DNA of 40,072 nucleotides from positions 1-40,072 of the forward strand of contig CAMNRM010000049.1 of the NCBI GenBank assembly GCA_946553025.1, in the 5' to 3' direction. The stretch is from an uncultured Clostridium sp. GTDB taxonomy: Bacteria > Bacillota > Clostridia > Lachnospirales > Lachnospiraceae. The position numbers and the translations under genes were made by a program. The first letter of the stretch is position 1; every line of letters begins with the position of its first letter. Below, piece by piece: positions 777 through 33,857 of the stretch. A model generated the notes under the pieces. The model was not told where the DNA came from. It saw only the letters and a list, made by a program, of their open reading frames with translations, and did no database searches.

Positions 777-968
777 GGCAAAGCTGGCGTGTCAGCCATG
801 AGAAATGTTGATGTGGCAAAAACTTTAAATATGGAGCAGATTCTATTGCTTTTGGAGGCAAGTAAAAATACACCGATACATATGCAGGTACTCTTCAATG
901 TACTGATGGGTCTGCGGCGGCAGGAAGGAGAGTATGACGAAGAAGGAACTGCGTTACTGTTCACATAG
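777..968 (+). pseudogene. Tyrosine recombinase (phage-type integrase) fragment
   Basis: Between an in-frame TAA (774-776) and TAG (966-968) the translation includes TLNMEQILLLLEASK and then LFNVLMGLRRQEGE. This matches the start of the tyrosine-recombinase catalytic domain ('Lt.eq...ll.a......l...l.tGlRr.E'), including the first catalytic arginine in GLRR. Everything after 'GLRRQE' (His-X-X-Arg box and tyrosine) is missing. The stop codon lies within a partial copy of the dispersed palindrome starting at 953, which suggests that insertion of the repeat helped to break or replace the gene. Confidence 0.6.
953..968 (-). repeat. Dispersed palindrome, partial copy
   Basis: GTTACTGTTCACAT matches one arm and the core of the dispersed palindrome; the second arm is lost. 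It interrupts the integrase remnant. Confidence 0.55.
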
Positions 969-1014
969 GTCTGCGCACCTGCTGCGCTGACCGTAGGTTA
1001 AACTGGGCCAGTGA

Positions 1015-1084
1015 GCAAAAATCCCATCGACGAAGGCAATTTTCATAGATTTTTGCCCGTTGCTGTGAACGTGTGAACAGCAAC
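1015..1084 (+). repeat. Dispersed palindrome with extended flank
   Basis: 1059-1084 is a full 26-bp copy: arms GTTGCTGT and ACAGCAAC around a 10-nt core GAACGTGTGA. Its left flank TTTTTGCCC is shared with the copies near 9484 (inverted) and 33841. Here the flank forms a second inverted repeat, GCAAAAATC (1015-1023) with GATTTTTGC (1048-1056), making a composite palindromic element. Confidence 0.75.
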
Positions 1085-1100
1085 AATAAGAGAATAAGAA

Positions 1101-5698: not shown

Positions 5699-5724
5699 AC
5701 CGTTATTGCGATTGGGAAAAATTC

Positions 5725-5750
5725 GTTATTGTGAATGTATGAACAGTAAC
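5725..5750 (+). repeat. Dispersed palindrome copy
   Basis: Arms GTTATTGT and ACAGTAAC around core GAATGTATGA. It is followed by GAAAAGT, a flank shared with the copy at 9685. Confidence 0.65.
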
Positions 5751-5763
5751 GAAAAGTCATCTG

Positions 5764-6812: not shown

Positions 6813-6856
6813 AATCGAACCTCCATCACTTAAGTAAAGATTTGTTAGTCAATGTT

Positions 6857-6882
6857 GTTGCTGCTCACATGTTCACAGCAAC
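6857..6882 (-). repeat. Dispersed palindrome copy
   Basis: Minus-orientation copy: GTTGCTGC, core TCACATGTTC, ACAGCAAC. Located upstream of the DUF5688 gene. Confidence 0.7.
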
Positions 6883-7295
6883 GTTTTCCCCATCACAAAA
6901 AAGAGGAAGATTGTACTTTTTCGCAGAAATACACAGAAGAGTACAGAATAAATCCCGAATTACATGGGTTAAAACAGATATAACTTTCATTCAATTGTAT
7001 TATTTTGGAATATTAAAGCTGGAAGAAACCAGCCTTATGCCTGAGAATTAAGTATTAGACAACAGGCATGGGATATGGCAGTACCTTACGAACATGAAGG
7101 CGGTCCTACTTATGGACACTTACAGCGAGAATTCGCTGAATAAGAAGTAATAAAATGATTATAGACGAAATATGGCGAAATTTCAAGAGGAAAATGTAAT
7201 TTTTTGTAAAAAAATATGCACAAAGATTAAAGATTATAGAAGAAAAGTTATAGAAAATTCGAGATGCGCAGTAAAATGGGCACTCCCTCAATAAG
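6883..7295. other. AT-rich intergenic stretch with a short unrecognised coding relic
   Basis: No convincing gene. Around 7036-7140 a plus-strand frame of about 32 codons ends RQQAWDMAVPYEHEGGPTYG then HLQREFAE and a stop. It has biased, protein-like composition but is closed by a TGA just upstream, so it may be the tail of a lost gene. ATGCCTG (7037-7043) and CAGGCAT (7064-7070) form a small inverted repeat. The rest is AT-rich with nothing I can name. Confidence 0.3.
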
Positions 7296-9414: not shown

Positions 9415-9483
9415 TCCGGCAGATATATTAAATATTCTTATAAATAAACGGAAAAAATATAACATATAGCGGAACAACGTTTG

Positions 9484-9509
9484 GTTACTGTTCACATGTT
9501 CACCGTAAT
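9484..9509 (-). repeat. Dispersed palindrome copy
   Basis: GTTACTGT, core TCACATGTTC, ACCGTAAT (one arm mismatch). It is followed at once by GGGCAAAAATC, the same extended flank (inverted) as the copy at 1059. The 9284-9791 intergenic stretch holds this and two more copies and no other gene. Confidence 0.7.
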
Positions 9510-9684
9510 GGGCAAAAATCCATAAAAATCAGTCATCCATAAAAATCATCGACAAAAATTGACATCTGAAGAAAATCGAGATAGACTGATAGAAAAGCGG
9601 TTATCGTGAATGCAGAACAACAGCAGCAAAAAGCTTTATGTGTCTGCCCGGCACAGATAAAGCATAAGATGGGGAAGAAAAGTA

Positions 9685-9710
9685 GTTGCTGTGAACATAT
9701 AAACAGTAAC
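9685..9710 (+). repeat. Dispersed palindrome copy
   Basis: GTTGCTGT, core GAACATATAA, ACAGTAAC; followed by GAAAAGT as at 5751. Confidence 0.7.
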
Positions 9711-9730
9711 GAAAAGTATGAGAAAGGGAG

Positions 9731-9756
9731 GTTGCTGTGAACATGTGAACAGCAGC
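9731..9756 (+). repeat. Dispersed palindrome copy
   Basis: GTTGCTGT, core GAACATGTGA, ACAGCAGC. It is only 20 nt after the previous copy and just upstream of the amidase gene. Confidence 0.7.
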
Positions 9757-9791
9757 AAAGGGAGAGCATGGCCGGGAAAGGAGAAGGAGTT

Positions 9792-15871: not shown

Positions 15872-17410
15872 ATGAGCAAAAAACCTGTAGTATTAATGAT
15901 ACTTGACGGTTACGGATTAAATGACAATTGCGAACACAACGCCGTCTGCGAGGCCAAAACCCCGGTGATGGATCAGTTAATGAGCCAGTGCCCCTTCGTC
16001 AAGGGCAATGCCAGCGGTATGGCAGTAGGACTTCCCGAGGGCCAGATGGGCAATTCCGAAGTAGGCCACTTAAACATGGGCGCGGGCCGCATTGTCTATC
16101 AGGAATTAACCCGTATTACCAAGTCCATCCAGGACGGTGATTTCTTTGAGATTCCCGCTTTCCTTGAGGCTGTAGAAAACTGCAAAAAGCACGATTCCGC
16201 CCTCCACCTGTACGGTCTGGTATCCGACGGCGGCGTTCACAGCCATTTAACCCATATCTACGGCCTGTTAGAGCTTGCAAAGCGCCAGGGCCTGGAAAAA
16301 GTTTACGTTCACTGCTTCTTAGACGGGCGTGACACCCCTCCGGCCTCCGGCAAAGAATTTGTCGAAACCTTAGAAGCCAAGATGAAGGAAATCGGCGTGG
16401 GAAAAGTAGCTTCCGTGATGGGCCGCTACTATGCCATGGACCGGGATAAAAACTGGGATCGCGTAAAACTCGCCTACGACGCTCTCACCAAGGGCGAAGG
16501 AAAAACCGCCGAAAGCGGCCCCGCAGGCATCCAGGCTTCCTACGACGAAGAAAAATTCGACGAATTTGTAATGCCGACCGTAGTCACCGAAAACGGAAAG
16601 CCTGTAGGCTTAATCAAGGAGCACGACTCCATTATCTTCTACAACTTCCGCCCCGACCGCGCCCGTGAAATCACCCGTGCCTTCTGTGACGACGAATTCA
16701 CCTACTTTGAGCGCGGCAAAAAGATGGATCTGGTCTATGTGTGCTTCACCGACTACGATGAAACCATTGCAAATAAGCTGGTAGCCTTCCACAAGGAAAC
16801 CATCACCAACACCTTCGGAGAATTTTTAGCCGCCCATCATAAGACCCAGGCCAGAATCGCCGAAACCGAGAAATACGCCCATGTAACCTTCTTCTTCAAC
16901 GGCGGCGTAGAAGAACCAAACGAAGGCGAAGACCGAATCCTCGTACCGTCCACCAAAGAAGTACCCACCTACGACTTAAAGCCGGAGATGAGCGCCCCGA
17001 TGGTGTGCGAAAAGCTGGTAGACTCCATTAAATCCGGGAAATATGATGTGATAATCATTAACTTTGCAAATCCGGATATGGTCGGTCACACCGGTGTGGA
17101 AGAAGCCGCAATTAAGGCAATCGAAGCCGTAGACGAATGCGTGGGTAAGGCCGTAGATGCCATCAAAGAAGTAAACGGCGTAATGTTCATCTGTGCAGAC
17201 CATGGAAACGCAGAACAATTAATCGACTATAACACCGGTGAACCCTGGACCGCCCACACGACGAATCCGGTTCCGTTTATTTTGGTCAATGCAGAACCTG
17301 GAGTGAAATTAAGAGAAGGCGGCTGCTTAGCCGACATTGCCCCGACTCTAATCGAACTGATGGGAATGGAACAGCCTAAAGAAATGACAGGAAAGAGTTT
17401 GCTGATATAA
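15872..17410 (+). CDS. gpmI: 2,3-bisphosphoglycerate-independent phosphoglycerate mutase
   Basis: GpmI interconverts 3- and 2-phosphoglycerate using two Mn ions and a serine nucleophile. The 512-aa protein starts MSKKPVVLMILDGYGLND, with the metal Asp in DGYG. The active serine is in MGNSEVGHLNMGAGR. Substrate-binding features include HSHLTHIYGL, CFLDGRDTPP and NFRPDRAREITRAF. The alkaline-phosphatase-like metal sites are in NFANPDMVGHTG and CADHGNAE. AAGGAG precedes the ATG. Last gene of the run; a structured element follows 25 nt after the stop, then a terminator. Confidence 0.98.
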   Translation: MSKKPVVLMILDGYGLNDNCEHNAVCEAKTPVMDQLMSQCPFVKGNASGMAVGLPEGQMGNSEVGHLNMGAGRIVYQELTRITKSIQDGDFFEIPAFLEAVENCKKHDSALHLYGLVSDGGVHSHLTHIYGLLELAKRQGLEKVYVHCFLDGRDTPPASGKEFVETLEAKMKEIGVGKVASVMGRYYAMDRDKNWDRVKLAYDALTKGEGKTAESGPAGIQASYDEEKFDEFVMPTVVTENGKPVGLIKEHDSIIFYNFRPDRAREITRAFCDDEFTYFERGKKMDLVYVCFTDYDETIANKLVAFHKETITNTFGEFLAAHHKTQARIAETEKYAHVTFFFNGGVEEPNEGEDRILVPSTKEVPTYDLKPEMSAPMVCEKLVDSIKSGKYDVIIINFANPDMVGHTGVEEAAIKAIEAVDECVGKAVDAIKEVNGVMFICADHGNAEQLIDYNTGEPWTAHTTNPVPFILVNAEPGVKLREGGCLADIAPTLIELMGMEQPKEMTGKSLLI

Positions 17411-17435
17411 AATATCTATACACCAGCGAAGGCAA

Positions 17436-17552
17436 AGCCATGTTCCGTGAGGAATCCCCTATCGAACGTCGGCGCTTAACGAGGTTCTTCACGAGTTTAG
17501 CGTCCGTTACGTTCTATGCGGAGCGAAAGCGTGGTGACGACGGAACATGGCT
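17436..17552 (+). repeat. Structured intergenic element, copy 1 (candidate ncRNA)
   Basis: The outer stem AGCCATGTTCCGT (17436-17448) is perfectly complementary to ACGGAACATGGCT (17540-17552). An inner stem GAACGT (17464-17469) pairs with ACGTTC (17509-17514) and continues inward (CGG with CCG, CGCTTAA with TTTAGCG). A small hairpin AGC-GAAA-GCG near 17522 has a GNRA-type loop. A second, diverged copy at 31578-31715 on the minus strand keeps every stem with different bases. It lies just after gpmI in the sense direction. Strand is set by the GNRA loop and is an inference. Confidence 0.75.
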
Positions 17553-17582
17553 CTGCTGTAGCGGAAAAGCATGTTAAAAAAT

Positions 17583-17615
17583 AAAACCCCTGGAGATTAA
17601 AAATCCGGGGGTTTT
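17583..17615 (+). terminator. Terminator of the glycolytic operon
   Basis: AAAACCCCTGGA (17583-17594) pairs with TCCGGGGGTTTT (17604-17615) through 12 pairs including one T-G wobble, then CATTTT. Confidence 0.75.
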
Positions 17616-17714
17616 CATTTTCCCAGGAAAGTGGTATACTGGTAAATGTTTATTATCATTTTCGCAATAAATATAGAAGAAAAGCATTTGATAAAAGATA
17701 CGGAGGAACCCCAC

Positions 17715-21228: not shown

Positions 21229-21272
21229 GGCGGTCAGCGCAGCAGATGCGCTGACCTGCTTGAACAGTACGT

Positions 21273-22639: not shown

Positions 22640-25147
22640 ATGAAGAAAGATGAAATAGGAAATGAAGAAAACCGCAGAGAAGATTTAACGCCGGATGACG
22701 GTTATTATCTTGACGGGGATTTCGACGGGGATGATGCCGGTCTTTCGGAGGGAGAATCCTGGGATGAGGACTGGGATGAACCGGTGAGCCAAAAGGCTTT
22801 GAAAGAAAAACGTGCCTGGCAGGAACAGGAAGAGGCCAGGGCAGCCGAAGAAGAGAAGGAAAAGGCCCGGGAAGAGATACTGCGGCGGGCTACGGAGGCG
22901 GTGGCCAGGGCAGAGGCGGTTATGCAGGGCAAAGGCGTTGTGGAGCCGGATATCCGGCGTGCCCGGGCGCTTGAGCGTGCCAGGGAGGAAGGACGAAAGA
23001 GGGCGGAGGCAGCCAGAGAAAGAGATGAGCTTGCCCGGATGAAGGAAGACTGGGTGGAGCCTATCCGCAAGGAGGAAAAGGAAGACTGGCTGGATGCCAT
23101 ACGCAGGGAAGAAGAGGCCATGCGCCGGGAGGCGGACAGGGCCAAAAAAAGAGCAGCCCGGGAAAATGACAGGCTGGAAAATACAGAAATGGATGATGAG
23201 GAAGGGACGGGTCCTTATGAAGAGGATTCGTATGAAGAGATGAACGAAAAAGCAAAGCAGAGTACCGAAACAAAGGGAGAGAAAGCGTCCTCCAAAGGAA
23301 AGGGAGGAAAGATTGCCGGAGGCATAGCAGCCGCAGTGCTTGTGGGCGGCGTGGCTGTATACTGTGTGATGGCACAGCAGTATAAAAAGGAGTTTTTTCC
23401 CAATACAAAGATCAATGGGATAGAAGCAGGAAAAAAGGAAATTGACCAGGTAAAAGAGATGATTTCTTCGGCTATGGACGGCTATCAGATCCGCCTTCAG
23501 GGCCGAAAAGGACAGGAAGAAGTTCTGACGAAGGATGATGTGGGTCTTCACACCGTGTTTGACGGGACACTGGAAGAAATCTTAGAAGACCAGAACCCCT
23601 ATCTCTGGGGCATACATCTATTTAAAAAGGAAGATCTGCAGGTGAGCACGGTAGCTGCCTATGATGAAACCTTATTCCAGCAGAAGGTGGACAGCCTTTC
23701 GTTTTTGGACCCGCAGAACGTCCAGTCCGGGAAAGAAGCTTATATCTCGGAATACATAGAGGGAACCGGCTATGAGATTGTGCCGGAAGATCCGGGAACG
23801 GAAATCAAGAAAGATGTTCTGGCAAGTGAATTAGGGCAGGCGATGCTGACCATGCAGAGCGAATTTATCCTGGAAAATGCGGGCTGTTATCTTAAACCGC
23901 TTCCCGGGGAGCCCGATCCGGAATTAGTGGCACAAAAGGATTTGCTTAACCGTTTCGCCCAGATGACCGTAACCTATACCTTCGGGGACGACCAGGAAGT
24001 GTTAAATGGTGATTCCATCCACGAATGGGTAAGCTTTGACGAAGAAAACCAGCCGGTCGTTGACGAAGAAAAGGTTAAGGCGTTTGTGGAGGATCTGGCG
24101 AAAAAGTACGATACGGCCAATACCGTCCGCAAGTTTACGACCTCCTATGGTTCGGAGGTTGAGGTTTCCGGCGCGTTTGGCTGGAAAATTGACCAGGCAG
24201 CGGAAACCGAAGCGTTAAAGAAGATTATTGCCGACGGGGAGAGCATGGTCAGAGAGCCGGAGTATGCCCAGGAAGGCATTACCCGAAAAGGGCAGGAATA
24301 CGGCGACACTTATGCTGAGGTGAACCTGACGGCACAGCATCTGTTCTTATATAAAGACGGAGAAAAGATTCTGGAATCCGATTTTGTATCGGGAAATGTG
24401 GCAAGGGGCCATACCACGCCGCCCGGCATTTTCAGCATTGCCTATAAGCAGAGAAATGCGGTTCTGCGCGGCCCGGGCTATGCATCTCCGGTAAATTTCT
24501 GGATGCCGTTTAACGGAGGGATTGGCTTCCACGATGCAAGCTGGAGAGGCTCGTTTGGCGGAAGCATCTACCGCACGAACGGCTCACACGGCTGTGTAAA
24601 CATGCCTTATAATGCTGCAAAAACGATGTTTGAAACCGTCTATACCGGGATGCCGGTTATCTGCTATAACCTGGACGGAACCAGCAATACCAAGAGCACG
24701 AACGCTTCCGGAGGTACGGCTCCAAAGGTAAATACACGTCCCGCAGTCCCGGCGGCTCCGGCAGTCCCTGTAGTTCCCGCTGCACCGCAGCCGGTCGCAG
24801 CCCCTGTACTGGGCAATGAAGGCGGCGGTTCCATGGGCGGCGGAAGCGTGGCGGTTCCCGGAACGGTTCCGGAAACCCCGGCACCGGCTCCGGAAGTACC
24901 CGCAGGAAGCGCCGATACCGGTTTAGGCGGGGGAAATGCGGCAGCAGGCGGTGCTGTTGTTCCTGAAGTTCCTGCAGAAACCCCGGCACCAGCTCCGGTT
25001 CCTGCAGAAACTCCGGCACCGGCACCCGTTCCGGCGGAAACTCCGGCACCGGCACCGCTTCCGGTGGAAACTCCAGCACCGGCACCGGCCGTTATGGGAG
25101 GCGCAGGAAGTGTAGTTCCGGAAGTTCCGGCAGTTCCCGGAATGTAA
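22640..25147 (+). CDS. L,D-transpeptidase (YkuD) with long charged cytoplasmic domain and Pro/Ala tail
   Basis: An 835-aa membrane-anchored enzyme predicted to make 3-3 crosslinks or attach proteins to peptidoglycan. Residues 1-222 are extremely charged, Glu/Arg/Lys-rich and probably coiled coil. A TM helix follows (about 225-245, IAGGIAAAVLVGGVAVYCVM), then a peptidoglycan-binding-type region (about 250-545). The YkuD domain (about 555-675) has FHDASWRGS and the catalytic NGSHGCVNM, His650 and Cys652. The last 150 residues are Pro/Ala/Gly-rich with a near-perfect PVPAETPAPA repeat, typical of a wall-spanning linker. Length is well above common YkuD proteins because of both ends. Two promoters precede it; the LCP gene follows. 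Confidence 0.92.
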   Translation: MKKDEIGNEENRREDLTPDDGYYLDGDFDGDDAGLSEGESWDEDWDEPVSQKALKEKRAWQEQEEARAAEEEKEKAREEILRRATEAVARAEAVMQGKGVVEPDIRRARALERAREEGRKRAEAARERDELARMKEDWVEPIRKEEKEDWLDAIRREEEAMRREADRAKKRAARENDRLENTEMDDEEGTGPYEEDSYEEMNEKAKQSTETKGEKASSKGKGGKIAGGIAAAVLVGGVAVYCVMAQQYKKEFFPNTKINGIEAGKKEIDQVKEMISSAMDGYQIRLQGRKGQEEVLTKDDVGLHTVFDGTLEEILEDQNPYLWGIHLFKKEDLQVSTVAAYDETLFQQKVDSLSFLDPQNVQSGKEAYISEYIEGTGYEIVPEDPGTEIKKDVLASELGQAMLTMQSEFILENAGCYLKPLPGEPDPELVAQKDLLNRFAQMTVTYTFGDDQEVLNGDSIHEWVSFDEENQPVVDEEKVKAFVEDLAKKYDTANTVRKFTTSYGSEVEVSGAFGWKIDQAAETEALKKIIADGESMVREPEYAQEGITRKGQEYGDTYAEVNLTAQHLFLYKDGEKILESDFVSGNVARGHTTPPGIFSIAYKQRNAVLRGPGYASPVNFWMPFNGGIGFHDASWRGSFGGSIYRTNGSHGCVNMPYNAAKTMFETVYTGMPVICYNLDGTSNTKSTNASGGTAPKVNTRPAVPAAPAVPVVPAAPQPVAAPVLGNEGGGSMGGGSVAVPGTVPETPAPAPEVPAGSADTGLGGGNAAAGGAVVPEVPAETPAPAPVPAETPAPAPVPAETPAPAPLPVETPAPAPAVMGGAGSVVPEVPAVPGM
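24961..25086 (+). repeat. In-gene tandem repeat coding for a Pro/Ala decapeptide
   Basis: A roughly 30-bp unit coding for P-V-P-A-E-T-P-A-P-A is repeated about four times inside the L,D-transpeptidase tail. Such repeats often vary in number between strains. Confidence 0.7.
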
Positions 25148-30221: not shown

Positions 30222-30264
30222 GGCGATGTTTTTTTTGCGGGGTGCGGCAGTGGGGAAATACCTG

Positions 30265-30290
30265 GTTACTGTGAACGTGTGAACAGTAAC
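30265..30290 (+). repeat. Dispersed palindrome copy
   Basis: GTTACTGT, core GAACGTGTGA, ACAGTAAC; both arms perfect. It lies between dapF and dapL. Confidence 0.8.
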
Positions 30291-30334
30291 AATACCTGGA
30301 TGTGTGCTAAAGGATGCACGGGATGGAGGAAGAG

Positions 30335-31549
30335 ATGAAAATAAATCATAATTATCAGAAACTGCCGGGAAGCTATTTGTTTTCTACCATTGCCAAAAAG
30401 GTGGCAGTTTACGGGAAAGAACATCCGGAAGCGGAGATTATCCGGCTGGGGATTGGCGATGTGACCCTGCCGATTGCGCCCTCGATTGTGAAGGCCATGC
30501 ATGAGGCGGTGGAGGAGATGGGTCATGCAGAAACCTTCCGCGGCTATGCACCGGATCTGGGCTATGATTTTCTGCGTGAGGCGATAGCAAAGACGGATTA
30601 TAAGCGGTTAGGCTGTGAGGTTTTTTCGGATGAGATTTTTATCTCAGACGGGGCAAAATGTGACTGCGGAAATATTCAGGAACTGTTTTCCGCCGAGGCA
30701 AAGATTGCCGTTTGCGACCCGGTTTATCCCGTATATGTGGATTCTAATGTGATGGCGGGGCGTACCGGGGAATGGGATGAAGCTTTCGGAAGATGGTCGA
30801 ATGTGATTTATCTGCCCTGTACGAAGGAGAACGGGTTTGTTCCGGAACTTCCAAAAGAAACGCCGGATTTGATTTATCTGTGCAATCCGAATAATCCGAC
30901 GGGGACGACATTAAACCGAGAACAGCTGAAGGTTTGGGTGGATTACGCCAATGCACATGACGCGGTGATTATGTATGATGCGGCGTATGAGGCGTATATT
31001 CAGGAGGAGGATGTGCCGCACAGTATCTTTGAGATTGACGGGGCGAGAAGCTGTGCGGTGGAATTTCGATCCTTTTCCAAAAATGCAGGGTTTACGGGGG
31101 TAAGGCTTGGATTTACGGTGATTCCTAAGGAACTGGTGCGGGAAGGCGTTTCTTTGCATTCGATGTGGGCAAGGAGGCATGGGACGAAGTATAACGGAGC
31201 GCCCTATATTCAGCAGAAGGCCGGGCTGGCGGTTTATGGCGATGAGGGGCAGAAGGAGATTAGGGAGCAGATCCGGTATTATATGCGGAATGCGAAGGTG
31301 ATTTATGAGGGCTTGAAGAAGTTAGGGTATGAGGTGTTTGGCGGGGTGAATTCGCCTTATGTGTGGCTGTATACAGGGGAGAGGAGTTCATGGGAGTTTT
31401 TTGATGAGCTGCTGGATAAAGCCCATGTAGTGGGAACGCCCGGAAGCGGGTTTGGGCCGGAGGGGGAGCATTATTTCCGGCTTACCGGGTTTGGGAGTTA
31501 TGAGAATACGGTGAGGGCGGTTGAGAGGATGAAGGAGATGGGGAGGTAA
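30335..31549 (+). CDS. dapL: LL-diaminopimelate aminotransferase
   Basis: DapL makes LL-diaminopimelate directly from tetrahydrodipicolinate with glutamate as donor. The 404-aa protein shows NYQKLPGSYLFSTIAKKV and IIRLGIGDVTLPIAPSIV, both strongly characteristic. It has SDGAKCDCGNIQELF, LCNPNNPTGTTL, MYDAAYEAYI, and FRSFSKNAGFTGVRLGFTVI with the PLP lysine. ATG 30335 follows GGAGG; ATGs at 30314 and 30323 are in frame but the site lies after them. Codon and G usage near the 3' end is notably purine-rich. Confidence 0.97.
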   Translation: MKINHNYQKLPGSYLFSTIAKKVAVYGKEHPEAEIIRLGIGDVTLPIAPSIVKAMHEAVEEMGHAETFRGYAPDLGYDFLREAIAKTDYKRLGCEVFSDEIFISDGAKCDCGNIQELFSAEAKIAVCDPVYPVYVDSNVMAGRTGEWDEAFGRWSNVIYLPCTKENGFVPELPKETPDLIYLCNPNNPTGTTLNREQLKVWVDYANAHDAVIMYDAAYEAYIQEEDVPHSIFEIDGARSCAVEFRSFSKNAGFTGVRLGFTVIPKELVREGVSLHSMWARRHGTKYNGAPYIQQKAGLAVYGDEGQKEIREQIRYYMRNAKVIYEGLKKLGYEVFGGVNSPYVWLYTGERSSWEFFDELLDKAHVVGTPGSGFGPEGEHYFRLTGFGSYENTVRAVERMKEMGR

Positions 31550-31577
31550 ATGGGAAAGGTTGGTTAGTGTCCCGCCC

Positions 31578-31715
31578 GCGGAGAAAGGGCTGTGTTCCGT
31601 CGTCACCGCGCTCTCGCTCCGCAAAAAACGCAGCGGACGCTAAGTTCGTGGAAGACCTCACTAAGCGCCGGCGTTTTTTGAGGGGATTCCTCACGGAACA
31701 CAGCCCTTTCTCCGC
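31578..31715 (-). repeat. Structured intergenic element, copy 2 (candidate ncRNA)
   Basis: The outer stem is 23 bp, perfect: the arms are 31578-31600 and 31693-31715, and include GTTCCGT and ACGGAAC. Read on the minus strand it aligns along its whole length with copy 1 at 17436. The inner stem here is CAAAAAACGC with GCGTTTTTTG where copy 1 has GAACGT with ACGTTC, and the small hairpin is AGC-GAGA-GCG. It lies 95 nt after the ABC-F stop in that gene's sense direction, and directly after dapL on the other strand. Confidence 0.75.
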
Positions 31716-31810
31716 TGCTTTGTAGGCTGGCTGGGGAAAGGGGGTTTTTGTTTTTAGGATTTTTCTTTTTTGTTATTAGAGTTTCTGGATTTTAATGTGT
31801 GTTCCCCTTT

Positions 31811-33439
31811 TTAGAGTTTTAGGGTTTTTGTTGCTATGGTTTGGGCGAATCTTTGGTCGTGTTCTACGATGAGCATGGTGGGGCGGTAGGTTTGGATTAG
31901 GGTTTCTATCTGCATTCGTGAAAAGATATCGATATAGTTTAGCGGCTCGTCCCAGATGTACAGGTGGGCGGGGGTGAGGAGGCTGGCGGCTATTAAAACT
32001 TTTTTCTTTTGTCCTTCGGAGAATTCTTCCATGGGTTTTTGGAATTGTTCTCTTTCCAGGTCAAGCTGGCGAAGGAGGGCGTAAAATAAGGGCTCGGACA
32101 GGTTATGTTGGTTGCTGAAGGTTTTTAGTTTTCCCTGGAGGAAGGATGTATCCTGGCTTACGTAGGAAACGATGAGGGAGGCTGCGGTGCGCAGGGTTCC
32201 CCATTCGGTTGGGGGAGTTGGAGTGGCTGGGTTGCTTGGGGTGGCGGCGGGGTTTTGTGGGAGTGGGGGTTTTTGGGTGCCTGGGGGGTTTGTGGTAGTC
32301 AGGGGGACTGTGCTGGTTGGGGAGGGGTTTTTTTCCAGGTGGTGCAGCAGGGTCTGGATCAGGGTGGATTTTCCGCAGCCGTTGGCTCCCTGGAGGATGA
32401 TTCGGTCGCCGGTTTGGATGGTGAAGTTCAGGTTTTGGAATAAGGGGGCTTTTGCGCCGGGATATTGGAAACCGTAGTTTTCTGCGCTTACCAGTATCTT
32501 TTTTTCGTGGGTCAGCGGCATGATTTTTAGTGGGACGGGGGTTTCGATATCGTTGAGAAGCCCTTCTTTTTGGCTGATTTCCTGTTCAATGCGTTTTTCG
32601 ATTTGTTTGACGCGGCTTTGCATCTTTTTGGTTTTTGCGCCGATGTAGGCTCTTTTTCCGCCGTGGCCGGGGTCTTTGATGGGGTCGAAGCCGATCTTTG
32701 ATGCTTCGCTTTTGTCTGCCCAGCGTTTTGCCTGTCCGGCGGCGGATTTGAGCTTGGCGATTTCTTTCTGGTGTTTTTCGTTTTCTGCCTGAGCGAACTG
32801 GTCCTTTTTTCGTTTGTTTTCCTGCCAGGAGGAGAAGTTTCCGGACTGGACTTCGATGGTCTGGCGGTTGAGTACCAGGACGTGATCGGTGCAGGCGTCT
32901 AAAAGGTCGCGGTCGTGGGATACCAGGATGAAGCCTTTTTTTCCGGAGAGGTAGGCTTTGACCGAGTCACGGCCTTTTTGATCCAGGTGATTGGTGGGTT
33001 CGTCAATCAGCAGGAAGTCATTTTCCCGGGAGAAGAGAATCGCCAGCATAACCTTTGTCTGTTCGCCGAAGCTTAAGGTGGAAAAGGGGCGGTAGAGGAT
33101 TTCGGGATCGGTGTCTAACAGGTTGAGTTCGCAGATAATCTGCCATTCTTCGACTCCGGATTTTAGGGTTTGGGCAAATGCAGAGGCGGGGCGGGCACGG
33201 TCTTCTGCGGAAATGGGGTAGGGGAAGTAGTCGAATACAGCCGGGGAGTCGATGGTTCCGGTGTAGGTGTAGTTTTCGTTTCCCGAAAGCAGGCGCAGGA
33301 AGGTGGTTTTTCCTTTTCCGTTCCGGCCGATAAAGCCCAGTTTCCAGTTGGTATCGATAGAAAAAGTTGCATGTTCAAAGATATTGTCAAAGCTTCCTTC
33401 ATAGGCGAAGGTGAGATCATTTACACGGATTTGTGCCAT
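31811..33439 (-). CDS. Lsa-type ABC-F ribosome protection protein
   Basis: A 542-aa cytoplasmic protein with two ABC ATPase domains and no membrane helices. ABC-F proteins of this type bind the E site of the ribosome and dislodge lincosamides, pleuromutilins or streptogramin A. NBD1 has Walker A GRNGKGKTT, signature STLSFGEQTK and Walker B LLIDEPTNHLD. The linker is long and basic (about 210-290), as in antibiotic-resistance ABC-Fs. NBD2 has Walker A GANGCGKST, signature EEFSEGQKKK and Walker B LYIWDEPLNYID. A Pro/Thr/Asn-rich insertion of about 45 residues (about 368-413) sits in NBD2 after Walker A. The start follows AAGGAGGA. The closest family I recognise is Lsa; the exact drug profile cannot be read. 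Confidence 0.88.
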   Translation of the reverse strand: MAQIRVNDLTFAYEGSFDNIFEHATFSIDTNWKLGFIGRNGKGKTTFLRLLSGNENYTYTGTIDSPAVFDYFPYPISAEDRARPASAFAQTLKSGVEEWQIICELNLLDTDPEILYRPFSTLSFGEQTKVMLAILFSRENDFLLIDEPTNHLDQKGRDSVKAYLSGKKGFILVSHDRDLLDACTDHVLVLNRQTIEVQSGNFSSWQENKRKKDQFAQAENEKHQKEIAKLKSAAGQAKRWADKSEASKIGFDPIKDPGHGGKRAYIGAKTKKMQSRVKQIEKRIEQEISQKEGLLNDIETPVPLKIMPLTHEKKILVSAENYGFQYPGAKAPLFQNLNFTIQTGDRIILQGANGCGKSTLIQTLLHHLEKNPSPTSTVPLTTTNPPGTQKPPLPQNPAATPSNPATPTPPTEWGTLRTAASLIVSYVSQDTSFLQGKLKTFSNQHNLSEPLFYALLRQLDLEREQFQKPMEEFSEGQKKKVLIAASLLTPAHLYIWDEPLNYIDIFSRMQIETLIQTYRPTMLIVEHDQRFAQTIATKTLKL

Positions 33440-33792: not shown

Positions 33793-33857
33793 GTTGGCGG
33801 TGAACGTGTGAATAGTAACTGAACAGTAACTATTTTGCCCGTGCTGTGAACAGTAAC
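33793..33857 (+). repeat. Dispersed palindrome cluster, degenerate
   Basis: 33793-33819 is a degenerate full copy (core GAACGTGTGA); 33820-33830 repeats its right arm (GAACAGTAAC). TATTTTGCCC (33831-33840) then leads into a shortened copy (33841-33857) missing the middle. The TTTTGCCC flank matches the copy at 1059. Confidence 0.55.

What the first reader, a model, noticed from the sequence alone, without database searches (positions are those of the whole stretch)
17436..17552. Candidate undescribed structured RNA or mobile structured repeat with covarying stems
Two full copies (17436-17552 on +; 31578-31715 on -) align end to end. The outer stem differs in sequence but remains paired in both (AGCCAT/ATGGCT against AGGGCTGT/ACAGCCCT). 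So does the inner stem (GAACGT/ACGTTC against CAAAAAACGC/GCGTTTTTTG). Both have a short hairpin with a GNRA-type loop (GAAA, GAGA). Conserved unpaired blocks (GAGGAATCCCCT; GGTGACGACGG) look like functional single-stranded parts. Both copies lie just after a stop codon in the sense direction (gpmI, ABC-F). Compensatory changes argue for an RNA-level function or a structure needed for mobility.
Basis: seen in the sequence. Interest (0 to 1): 0.85.

Follow-up and report, generated by a model that had tools for sequence, protein, structure and literature searches.

The report
Family-wide folded repeat in gut Lachnospiraceae
The two look-alike hairpins are copies of a roughly 150-base folded element, missing from the RNA family library searched, that is scattered through many Lachnospiraceae genomes and keeps its shape while its letters change, so something in these bacteria probably reads the fold.

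Summary
The two copies belong to an interspersed element with 32 strong full-length model matches in this genome and matches in 120 of 299 genomes of the same family. The fold is a three-way junction: variable arm P1, helix P1b, long arm P2/P3, and hairpin P4 with a GNRA loop. On 78 distinct sequences from other genera, 43 of 44 pairs change on both sides and 95.1% of cells pair. Rfam has no match.

It behaves like streptococcal BOX elements: a modular structured repeat, sometimes inside a MITE with 8-bp target duplications, elsewhere kept at orthologous loci. The GNRA strand is the folding strand, apparently whatever the neighbouring genes' direction. Neither Y1 transposase nor reverse transcriptase tracks it. 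Its P3 hairpin also occurs in other repeat types, seen only in this family among 391 genomes. I judge it a new variant of a known kind; the factor reading the fold is unknown.

The parts
17423..17565 (+). copy 1, whole element as matched by the covariance model
   Evidence: 160.1 bits, E 4.9e-38
17431..17448 (+). copy 1, P1 5' arm (pairs with 17540-17557)
   Evidence: 15 of 18 pairs of this helix change on both sides among 23 own copies
17540..17557 (+). copy 1, P1 3' arm
   Evidence: relatives; own copies L022 and L024 have Watson-Crick pairs there; the G.A step is inferred
17533..17538 (+). copy 1, P1b 3' strand GGTGAC (its first base is shared with the outermost P4 pair in my structure, so the two may compete)
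17461..17476 (+). copy 1, P2 5' strand (pairs with 17499-17517, bulges on the 3' side)
17499..17517 (+). copy 1, P2 3' strand
17475..17500 (+). copy 1, P3 hairpin CTTAACGAGGT..CGAGTTTAG, the module shared with other repeat types
17519..17533 (+). copy 1, P4 hairpin; GAAA loop at 17525-17528
   Evidence: GNRA in 138 of 139 classified loops
31575..31718 (-). copy 2, whole element; GAGA loop of P4 at 31615-31612, P3 at 31640-31665
   Evidence: 160.9 bits, E 3.1e-38; for P3; loop read
15872..17410 (+). gpmI, gene upstream of copy 1 in sense (stop 12 nt before the element)
   Evidence: TIGR01307 724.9 bits, cut-off 330.65
17587..17619 (+). terminator-like hairpin with T-rich tail downstream of copy 1, so the gpmI transcript may contain the element
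   Evidence: my own finder
31811..33439 (-). ABC-F gene, upstream of copy 2 in sense (92 nt)
   Evidence: NF000355 438.6 bits, cut-off 380
30314..31549 (+). LL-diaminopimelate aminotransferase gene, convergent; its stop lies 25 nt from the 3' end of copy 2
   Evidence: TIGR03542 587.9 bits, cut-off 364.7

Best explanation
The two sequences are members of a Lachnospiraceae-wide family of interspersed structured elements, about 140-215 bases long, that works like the BOX elements of streptococci. Shown here: one strand (the GNRA strand) folds as a three-way junction of P1+P1b, P2/P3 and P4; sequence changes freely in the arms while pairing is kept; the core is constrained; copies spread within genomes and some are then kept at orthologous loci. 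Inferred: the fold acts as RNA. It is made wherever a neighbouring or antisense transcript runs through it, and a host factor recognises the junction and the P3 hairpin (a ribonuclease, an RNA-binding protein or a transcription factor). It thereby affects processing, stability or termination of the transcript in cis. Spread is inferred to be non-autonomous: some copies ride in TIR elements with 8-bp target duplications, others insert without duplication through an unknown enzyme.
For: Family and copy number. Covariation. P1b. Strand: G.U 105 against A.C 44 over the pairs of A2, with 18 of the 44 A.C at one column; in P1, G.U:A.C is about 2:1 in all four gene-orientation classes. RNA-type loop: 138 of 139 classified P4 loops are GNRA, the third base a purine; the search required G..A. 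Constraint at orthologous loci of one genus: in two of five compared pairs the core is 93 and 100% identical while the arms fall to 43-64% and the left flank to 34-38%, with the arms still complementary by eye. Mobility: copies 93-97% identical to copy 1 at other loci; 8-bp target duplications; an empty site in a congener. Position: 138 of 154 copies overlap no frame of 150 codons or more by over 60 nt. Modular P3. Possible transcription of copy 1: terminator-like hairpin after it.
Against: No transcription data. No promoter excess points into the elements (32 found, 27.6 expected, of 151). Co-directional neighbours are more often antisense (51) than sense (36) to the GNRA strand, so a purely cis mRNA role does not explain constraint at antisense loci such as pnp-prfC (gene names by eye). 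In P2/P3 the wider count shows no G.U excess (26 against 30 A.C over the four classes); in A2 alone it is 23 against 1 once one column with 18 C.A cells is set aside. In the three other orthologous pairs most flanks are about as conserved as the core (87-98%, except one at 47%), so they show retention but little constraint. Gene conversion or hairpin-templated mutation could mimic part of the compensatory change. The choice of RNA over ssDNA rests on indirect signs. Genes beside the elements that I looked at share no evident function.
Confidence: 0.5

Rival explanations
1. The folded strand acts as single-stranded DNA: a REPIN-like element cut and pasted by an unidentified endonuclease or transposase that reads the hairpins of one strand. 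RNA plays no part.
For: Strand preference in P1 independent of gene direction; multicopy spread; close pairs of copies usually head to head: 4 of 4 within 150 nt in the own genome and 11 of 11 within 300 nt among the loci of A2 and A3; insertion without target duplication; placement outside genes as described for REPs (PMC3733652, abstract and passages).
Against: One same-direction pair 31 nt apart exists (G115:C131).
Confidence: 0.25
2. A passive miniature transposon. Pairing is kept not by selection but by hairpin-templated mutation and by gene conversion among copies.
For: 8-bp target duplications in 5 of 9 TIR-bearing own copies (among 30 loci) and two clear cases in G268; the TIR motif occurs 195 times in the own genome (control 1); coordinated arm changes over a short evolutionary distance; degenerate copies.
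Against: Templated mutation would not by itself keep a GNRA loop, bulges and a near-identical core at orthologous loci with diverged flanks, nor the G.U excess on one strand; most copies have neither this TIR nor a target duplication.
Confidence: 0.12
3. A family of independent trans-acting small RNA genes.
For: Compact covarying fold with GNRA loop.
Against: No promoter excess upstream (consensus scan); copies sit in all gene orientations; no terminator-like site within 450 nt of 24 of 30 own copies by my finder, which finds few anywhere in the window.
Confidence: 0.06
4. An unusual two-way transcription terminator between genes, as proposed for most palindromic RNA candidates in PMC8040213 (section 8 read).
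For: The element's 3' end lies within 50 nt of the stop codon of an opposing gene in 50 of the 67 copies that have such a neighbour; few canonical terminators near the copies.
Against: I see no T tract directly behind the hairpins (by eye); canonical terminators are rare in the window too, so their absence says little; a two-way terminator needs no strand-specific GNRA loop; copy 1 is followed by its own terminator-like hairpin.
Confidence: 0.07

Closest known systems
BOX elements of streptococci (PMC3049150, passages read)
   Same: Modular interspersed repeats, predicted to fold as RNA, module number varies, copies persist, no mobilising enzyme named for them in the passages I read.
   Different: Different host family; here a three-way junction with GNRA hairpin and very strong covariation, free-sequence arms, and a P3 module shared by several repeat architectures. 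No sequence comparison with BOX was run.
REP/REPIN elements and RAYT transposases (PMC3733652, abstract and passages; PMC6006769, passages; PMC3116915, listing only)
   Same: Palindromic, multicopy, mostly outside genes, copies often paired in inverted order.
   Different: About 140 rather than 20-40 bases; Y1 transposase absent from the own genome at E 1e-8 and not associated in 299 genomes; no GTAG tag seen as a constant feature.
MITEs
   Same: Nine of 30 own loci lie inside GTTACTGTTCAC-type inverted ends (two with variant ends); five of these nine have an 8-bp target duplication.
   Different: Most copies lack these TIRs and any duplication; the core is conserved across genera with different ends.
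Palindromic candidate structured RNAs of human microbiomes (PMC8040213, passages and section 8)
   Same: Covarying palindromic intergenic candidates from a screen for new structured RNAs.
   Different: The palindromic examples named in section 8 are mostly or entirely in Bacteroidetes; I could not check whether this motif is among the 3161 candidates.

Membership tests
any Rfam 15 family | match at or above gathering score | tested here: not met
   window, 20 loci, 17 loci: only tRNA, SSU rRNA, TPP and Clostridiales-1, none over an element or P3 hairpin by their coordinates; permissive scans of three copies gave only sub-gathering matches, the best ohsC_RNA 32.9 bits of 50 and mir-8303 24.3 of 90
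REP/REPIN mobilised by RAYT | Y1 tyrosine transposase in the genome | tested here: not met
   0 matches at E 1e-8 in the own genome; no association across 299 genomes
REP/REPIN mobilised by RAYT | constant GTAG or CGTC tag at one end | tested here: inconclusive
   ends vary by subfamily; several genera end in GCGTCC, others do not (by eye)
MITE | terminal inverted repeats with target site duplication | tested here: inconclusive
   8 bp exact in 5 of 9 TIR-bearing own loci (L077, L080 by script; L071, L072, L073 by eye) and in L110 and L113; no such duplication in most of the 109 rows; the empty-site comparison L234/L233 shows none
BOX element | modular RNA-like repeat with variable number of an inner module | tested here: met
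   an extra P3-bearing unit inside P3 of four own copies; tandem P3 hairpins in other loci
BOX element | sequence homology to boxA/boxB/boxC of streptococci | not tested
   no BOX sequence was compared
small RNA gene | own promoter directed into the element | tested here: not met
   32 of 151 upstream regions with a 9-of-12 promoter match, 27.6 expected (consensus scan only, so weak)
intrinsic terminator | GC hairpin followed directly by a T tract | tested here: not met
   no T tract at the element ends by eye; terminator-like sites within 450 nt at 6 of 30 own copies, none formed by the element
retroelement (SINE-like) | reverse transcriptase available in the genome | tested here: not met
   58 of 120 element-bearing genomes have no RVT_1 match at E 1e-10; no association, p 0.41; the own genome has one match
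any | transcription and function of the RNA | not testable with these tools
   no RNA-seq or bench data

The most novel reading that the evidence does not exclude
Lachnospiraceae share a family-specific recognition code: one small hairpin (CTTARYGAGGT..CGARYTTAG with a tandem G.A step) is the read-out module of several otherwise different repeat architectures, of which this three-way junction is the most elaborate. A single undescribed protein or RNP of this family, neither a Y1 transposase nor a reverse transcriptase, reads it as RNA and uses it both to spread the elements and to mark transcript ends.
Probability: 0.2. Interest if true: 0.85.

Novelty: new variant of a known kind. Interest (0 to 1): 0.7.

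Why it matters
Lachnospiraceae are a major family of the mammalian gut (general knowledge), yet this structured element, matched in 120 of 299 sampled genomes of the family, is absent from Rfam 15 and was not found in my literature searches. Its covariation gives a near-complete secondary structure without an experiment, and the many genera that carry it are a natural mutagenesis set. If a host factor reads it, finding that factor would explain how dispersed repeats shape transcripts in these bacteria; if it only spreads, it is a mobile element whose mobiliser is tied to neither of the two enzyme families tested.

Tried and rejected
Rfam identity: rejected. Plasmid or phage carriage: no match to copy 1 in either collection at E 1e-3 (one query each). 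Y1/RAYT mobilisation: not supported. Reverse-transcriptase dependence: not supported. Dedicated promoter: not supported. Intrinsic terminator: not supported, but the test is weak because canonical terminators are rare in the window (a looser tool scan of 20 kb found 24 with 24.6 expected). An autonomous parent of the GTTACTGTTCAC elements: of the places listed (100 of 195 shown), one opposed pair about 0.9 kb apart was fetched (L373); its long frame was not family-searched and reads by eye as a TatD-like hydrolase, not a transposase. Orthologue pair counts from the model alignment (42 both-side changes, 5 one-side, 13 broken, 186 same) are inflated by register shifts in P1 and are not used.

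Rows dropped: seven near-duplicate or enlarged own copies left out of A1, so that 23 of 30 went in; the reverse-strand self-match L131 + and the duplicate L119; three copies with under 150 bases of flank; L131 +, L303:1939, repeated sequences and those under 120 bases; L131 + and repeats. still holds L119 and L131 +. The gene caller skips frames that overlap the element, so 'outside genes' was tested apart (16 of 154 copies do overlap a frame of 150 codons or more). Searches of more than 40 genomes scored at most 8-10 candidates a genome, so copy numbers and genome counts are lower bounds. The class search used model R1 only. Literature: nine searches over open-access PMC only.

Full report
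Observation. The two stretches are real and align as described. blastn with copy 1 finds 42 places in the window's own genome of 4.87 Mb. A covariance model built from 23 of 30 own copies finds 34, of which 32 have E of 9e-25 or better and two are weak. A pattern scan for the P3 hairpin returned 120 loci, of which 80 titles were shown: Lachnospiraceae, genera usually placed there (for example Butyrivibrio, Faecalicatena, Hespellia, Robinsoniella), Clostridium and Eubacterium species, and unnamed Clostridia or bacteria. Of the 62 loci given to the model, 47 matches came back.

Fold. The structure that I wrote by hand has 44 pairs. On the 23 own copies 97.7% of cells pair; partners slid by 1-3 columns give 31-44%; 26 pairs change on both sides; covariation score 0.372, shuffled 0.174, 0 of 500; the number of further pair types does not exceed the shuffles (45 against 44.9). 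On 79 matches from other genera (78 distinct; one is the reverse strand of another), 95.1% of cells pair, 43 of 44 pairs change on both sides, score 0.794 against 0.222, 0 of 500; the slid versions reach at most 0.143. That alignment was fitted to the model, which favours pairing, but the difference is very large. The P1 arms differ widely in sequence between copies and stay paired (96.2% of cells of the main P1 helix).

The two conserved 'unpaired' blocks form a helix, P1b. With P1 columns left out, the duplex energy of the two segments is -7.71 on average over 61 distinct segment pairs, against -4.00 (sd 0.29) for permuted partners, 0 of 500; 56 of 61 are at -4 or below (one search gave the same with three P1 columns included). 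In five of seven own copies printed, the duplex is weak by standard pairs (-2.3 to -2.5) and would hold a tandem G.A step; own copies L022 and L024 have Watson-Crick pairs there (-6.5, -8.4). The tandem G.A reading here and in P3 is my inference; some G207-genus copies have an unbroken P3 helix instead (by eye).

Which strand and which polymer. In A2, non-Watson-Crick cells on the GNRA strand are G.U 105 against A.C 44, 18 of the latter at one column; by part, P1 45:21, P2/P3 23:1 without that column, P4 37:4; in A1 33:8, of which 16 G.U at one P4 pair. In a wider set P1 is about 2:1 whichever way the neighbouring genes run (25:12, 17:7, 16:6, 19:9), while P2/P3, with the odd column included, shows no excess (26:30). 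So the strand with the GNRA loop is probably the one that folds, independently of host transcription. Of 146 distinct element sequences one was dropped by rule, 139 P4 loops were classified and 6 were not; 138 of the 139 are GNRA and one is GACA (the search demanded G..A, so only the inner bases are informative). A purine at the third place points to RNA rather than DNA (general knowledge).

Distribution. Model R1: 96 of 299 genomes of the family at E 1e-3. Model R2, built from other genera: 120 of 299 at E 1e-4. Both are lower bounds. In 391 genomes of the class, 7 match R1, all among the 16 of the own family; 0 of 375 outside. The P3 pattern is found in 10 of those 16 and in 0 of 375, with no control match in any genome.

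Mobility. Several own copies at other places are 93-97% identical to copy 1 over all or most of its length. Nine of 30 own loci lie within GTTACTGTTCAC-type inverted ends, two of them with variant ends. Five have an exact 8-bp target duplication (L077 and L080 by script, L071-L073 by eye), one a partial one, three none. That end motif occurs 195 times in the genome against 1 for the reversed control and bounds another, 132-bp repeat, so part of the family rides in a MITE. In genome G268, L110 and L113 have 8-bp duplications with a related TIR. Most other copies have neither. In the genus of G207 and G475, the murB-rapZ spacing (names by eye) carries an element in G207. In G475 the spacing is uninterrupted: 183 bases are missing, 40 of them A+T-rich bases to the left of the element, with no duplication. 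Three further species have short spacings there without an element. Gain in G207 is the simplest reading; loss elsewhere is not excluded. Degenerate copies exist too.

Retention. In the same genus, four of seven G207 loci matched orthologous loci of G475 with an element. Flank searches added a fifth of the seven (L240/L239, pnp-prfC by eye) and one more shared locus (L237/L238). My comparison finished for five pairs: the cores are 100, 93, 99, 99 and 100% identical. In two of them (L191/L198, L238/L237) the arms fall to 43-64% and the left flank to 34-38% while the arms stay complementary by eye. In the other three most flanks are 87-98% identical, so they show retention only. At L240/L239 the cores differ by coordinated changes, including both inner P4 pairs (by eye). 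This speaks for constraint at single loci, although gene conversion cannot be excluded.

Gene context. Genes were called by a simple longest-frame rule that skips frames over the element. Of 107 copies with a neighbour on the 3' side, 67 have it on the opposite strand, 50 of these with the stop codon within 50 nt of the element; of 50 sense genes on the 5' side, 16 end within 50 nt (two rows are duplicates or reverse matches). In a wider set of 142 copies: antisense to both neighbours 51, sense to both 36, convergent 30, divergent 18, incomplete 7. Tested apart, 138 of 154 copies overlap no frame of 150 codons or more by over 60 nt and 16 do. Close pairs of copies are head to head in 4 of 4 own cases and 11 of 11 among the loci of A2 and A3 within 300 nt; a same-direction pair 31 nt apart occurs in G115. 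Promoter-like sites do not point into the element more than expected (32 against 27.6 of 151 upstream, 21 against 21.9 downstream), while strong ones (10 of 12) point away (16 and 15) rather than in (4 and 0). The elements look like passengers of neighbouring transcripts, if transcribed.

Modularity. The P3 hairpin occurs alone or in pairs in other repeat architectures: in the 120 loci my rule put 72 hits in full-like elements and 85 outside; some of the latter are full elements with a variant P4 that the rule missed. Tandem hairpins about 44 nt apart recur, also in three species of the G207 genus in which R1 found no full element. Four own copies (C6, C27, C30, C65) carry an extra unit with this hairpin inside P3. 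In 17 loci scanned, most of them with such hairpins, no Rfam family matched over them.

Mobilising enzyme. Y1 transposases and RVT_1 reverse transcriptases each occur in 62 of 120 element-bearing genomes and 102 of 179 others (the equal numbers are a coincidence of two different lists; p 0.41 each); 34 bearing genomes have neither. The own genome has no Y1 match and one RVT_1 match.

Comparison and verdict. By anatomy and behaviour it is nearest to BOX elements (PMC3049150, passages) and to REP/REPIN repeats (PMC3733652, abstract and passages). It fails the transposase test of the latter, and no homology to the former was tested. [quoted passage not shown] I could not check whether this motif is one of them. 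I file it as a new variant of a known kind. Shown: the family, the fold, spread, retention and the restriction to one family among 391 genomes. Probable: the folding strand. Inferred: RNA function in cis, and an unknown reading factor.

Noticed in passing
window 955-1093, 5718-5759, 6855-6883, 9477-9529, 9678-9765, 21231-21269, 30258-30299, 33794-33828: Copies or fragments of a separate MITE family with ends GTTACTGTTCAC/GTGAACAGTAAC (full form about 132 bp; L155 shows an 8-bp duplication); the end motif occurs 195 times in the genome against 1 for the reversed control.
   Followed up: partly
L352, L353, L316, L300, L364, L253: Another repeat type with P3-like hairpins next to GGTATAAT-like sequences that resemble -10 promoter boxes.
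   Followed up: no
L263, L339, L298, L257, L195, L202, L337: A two-hairpin unit (P3-like hairpin, then a second hairpin such as GTTCTGGCGAG..CGAGAGCAGAAC); in L337 it follows a tRNA gene. A unit of this kind sits inside P3 of four own copies (by eye).
   Followed up: partly
L095 1501-1840: A head-to-head pair of elements enclosed by long inverted flanks (..GGGGACAGTCCCAAATTGCACATAGTGTCGCAC.. and its complement), so that the whole composite could fold on one outer stem.
   Followed up: no
window 24870-25087: 30-base tandem repeats within the frame 22640-25147; by eye they code a Pro/Ala/Glu-rich stretch.
   Followed up: no
window, whole: Few canonical hairpin-plus-T-tract terminators: eight sites on both strands by my strict rule in 40 kb, not all at gene ends.
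   Followed up: no
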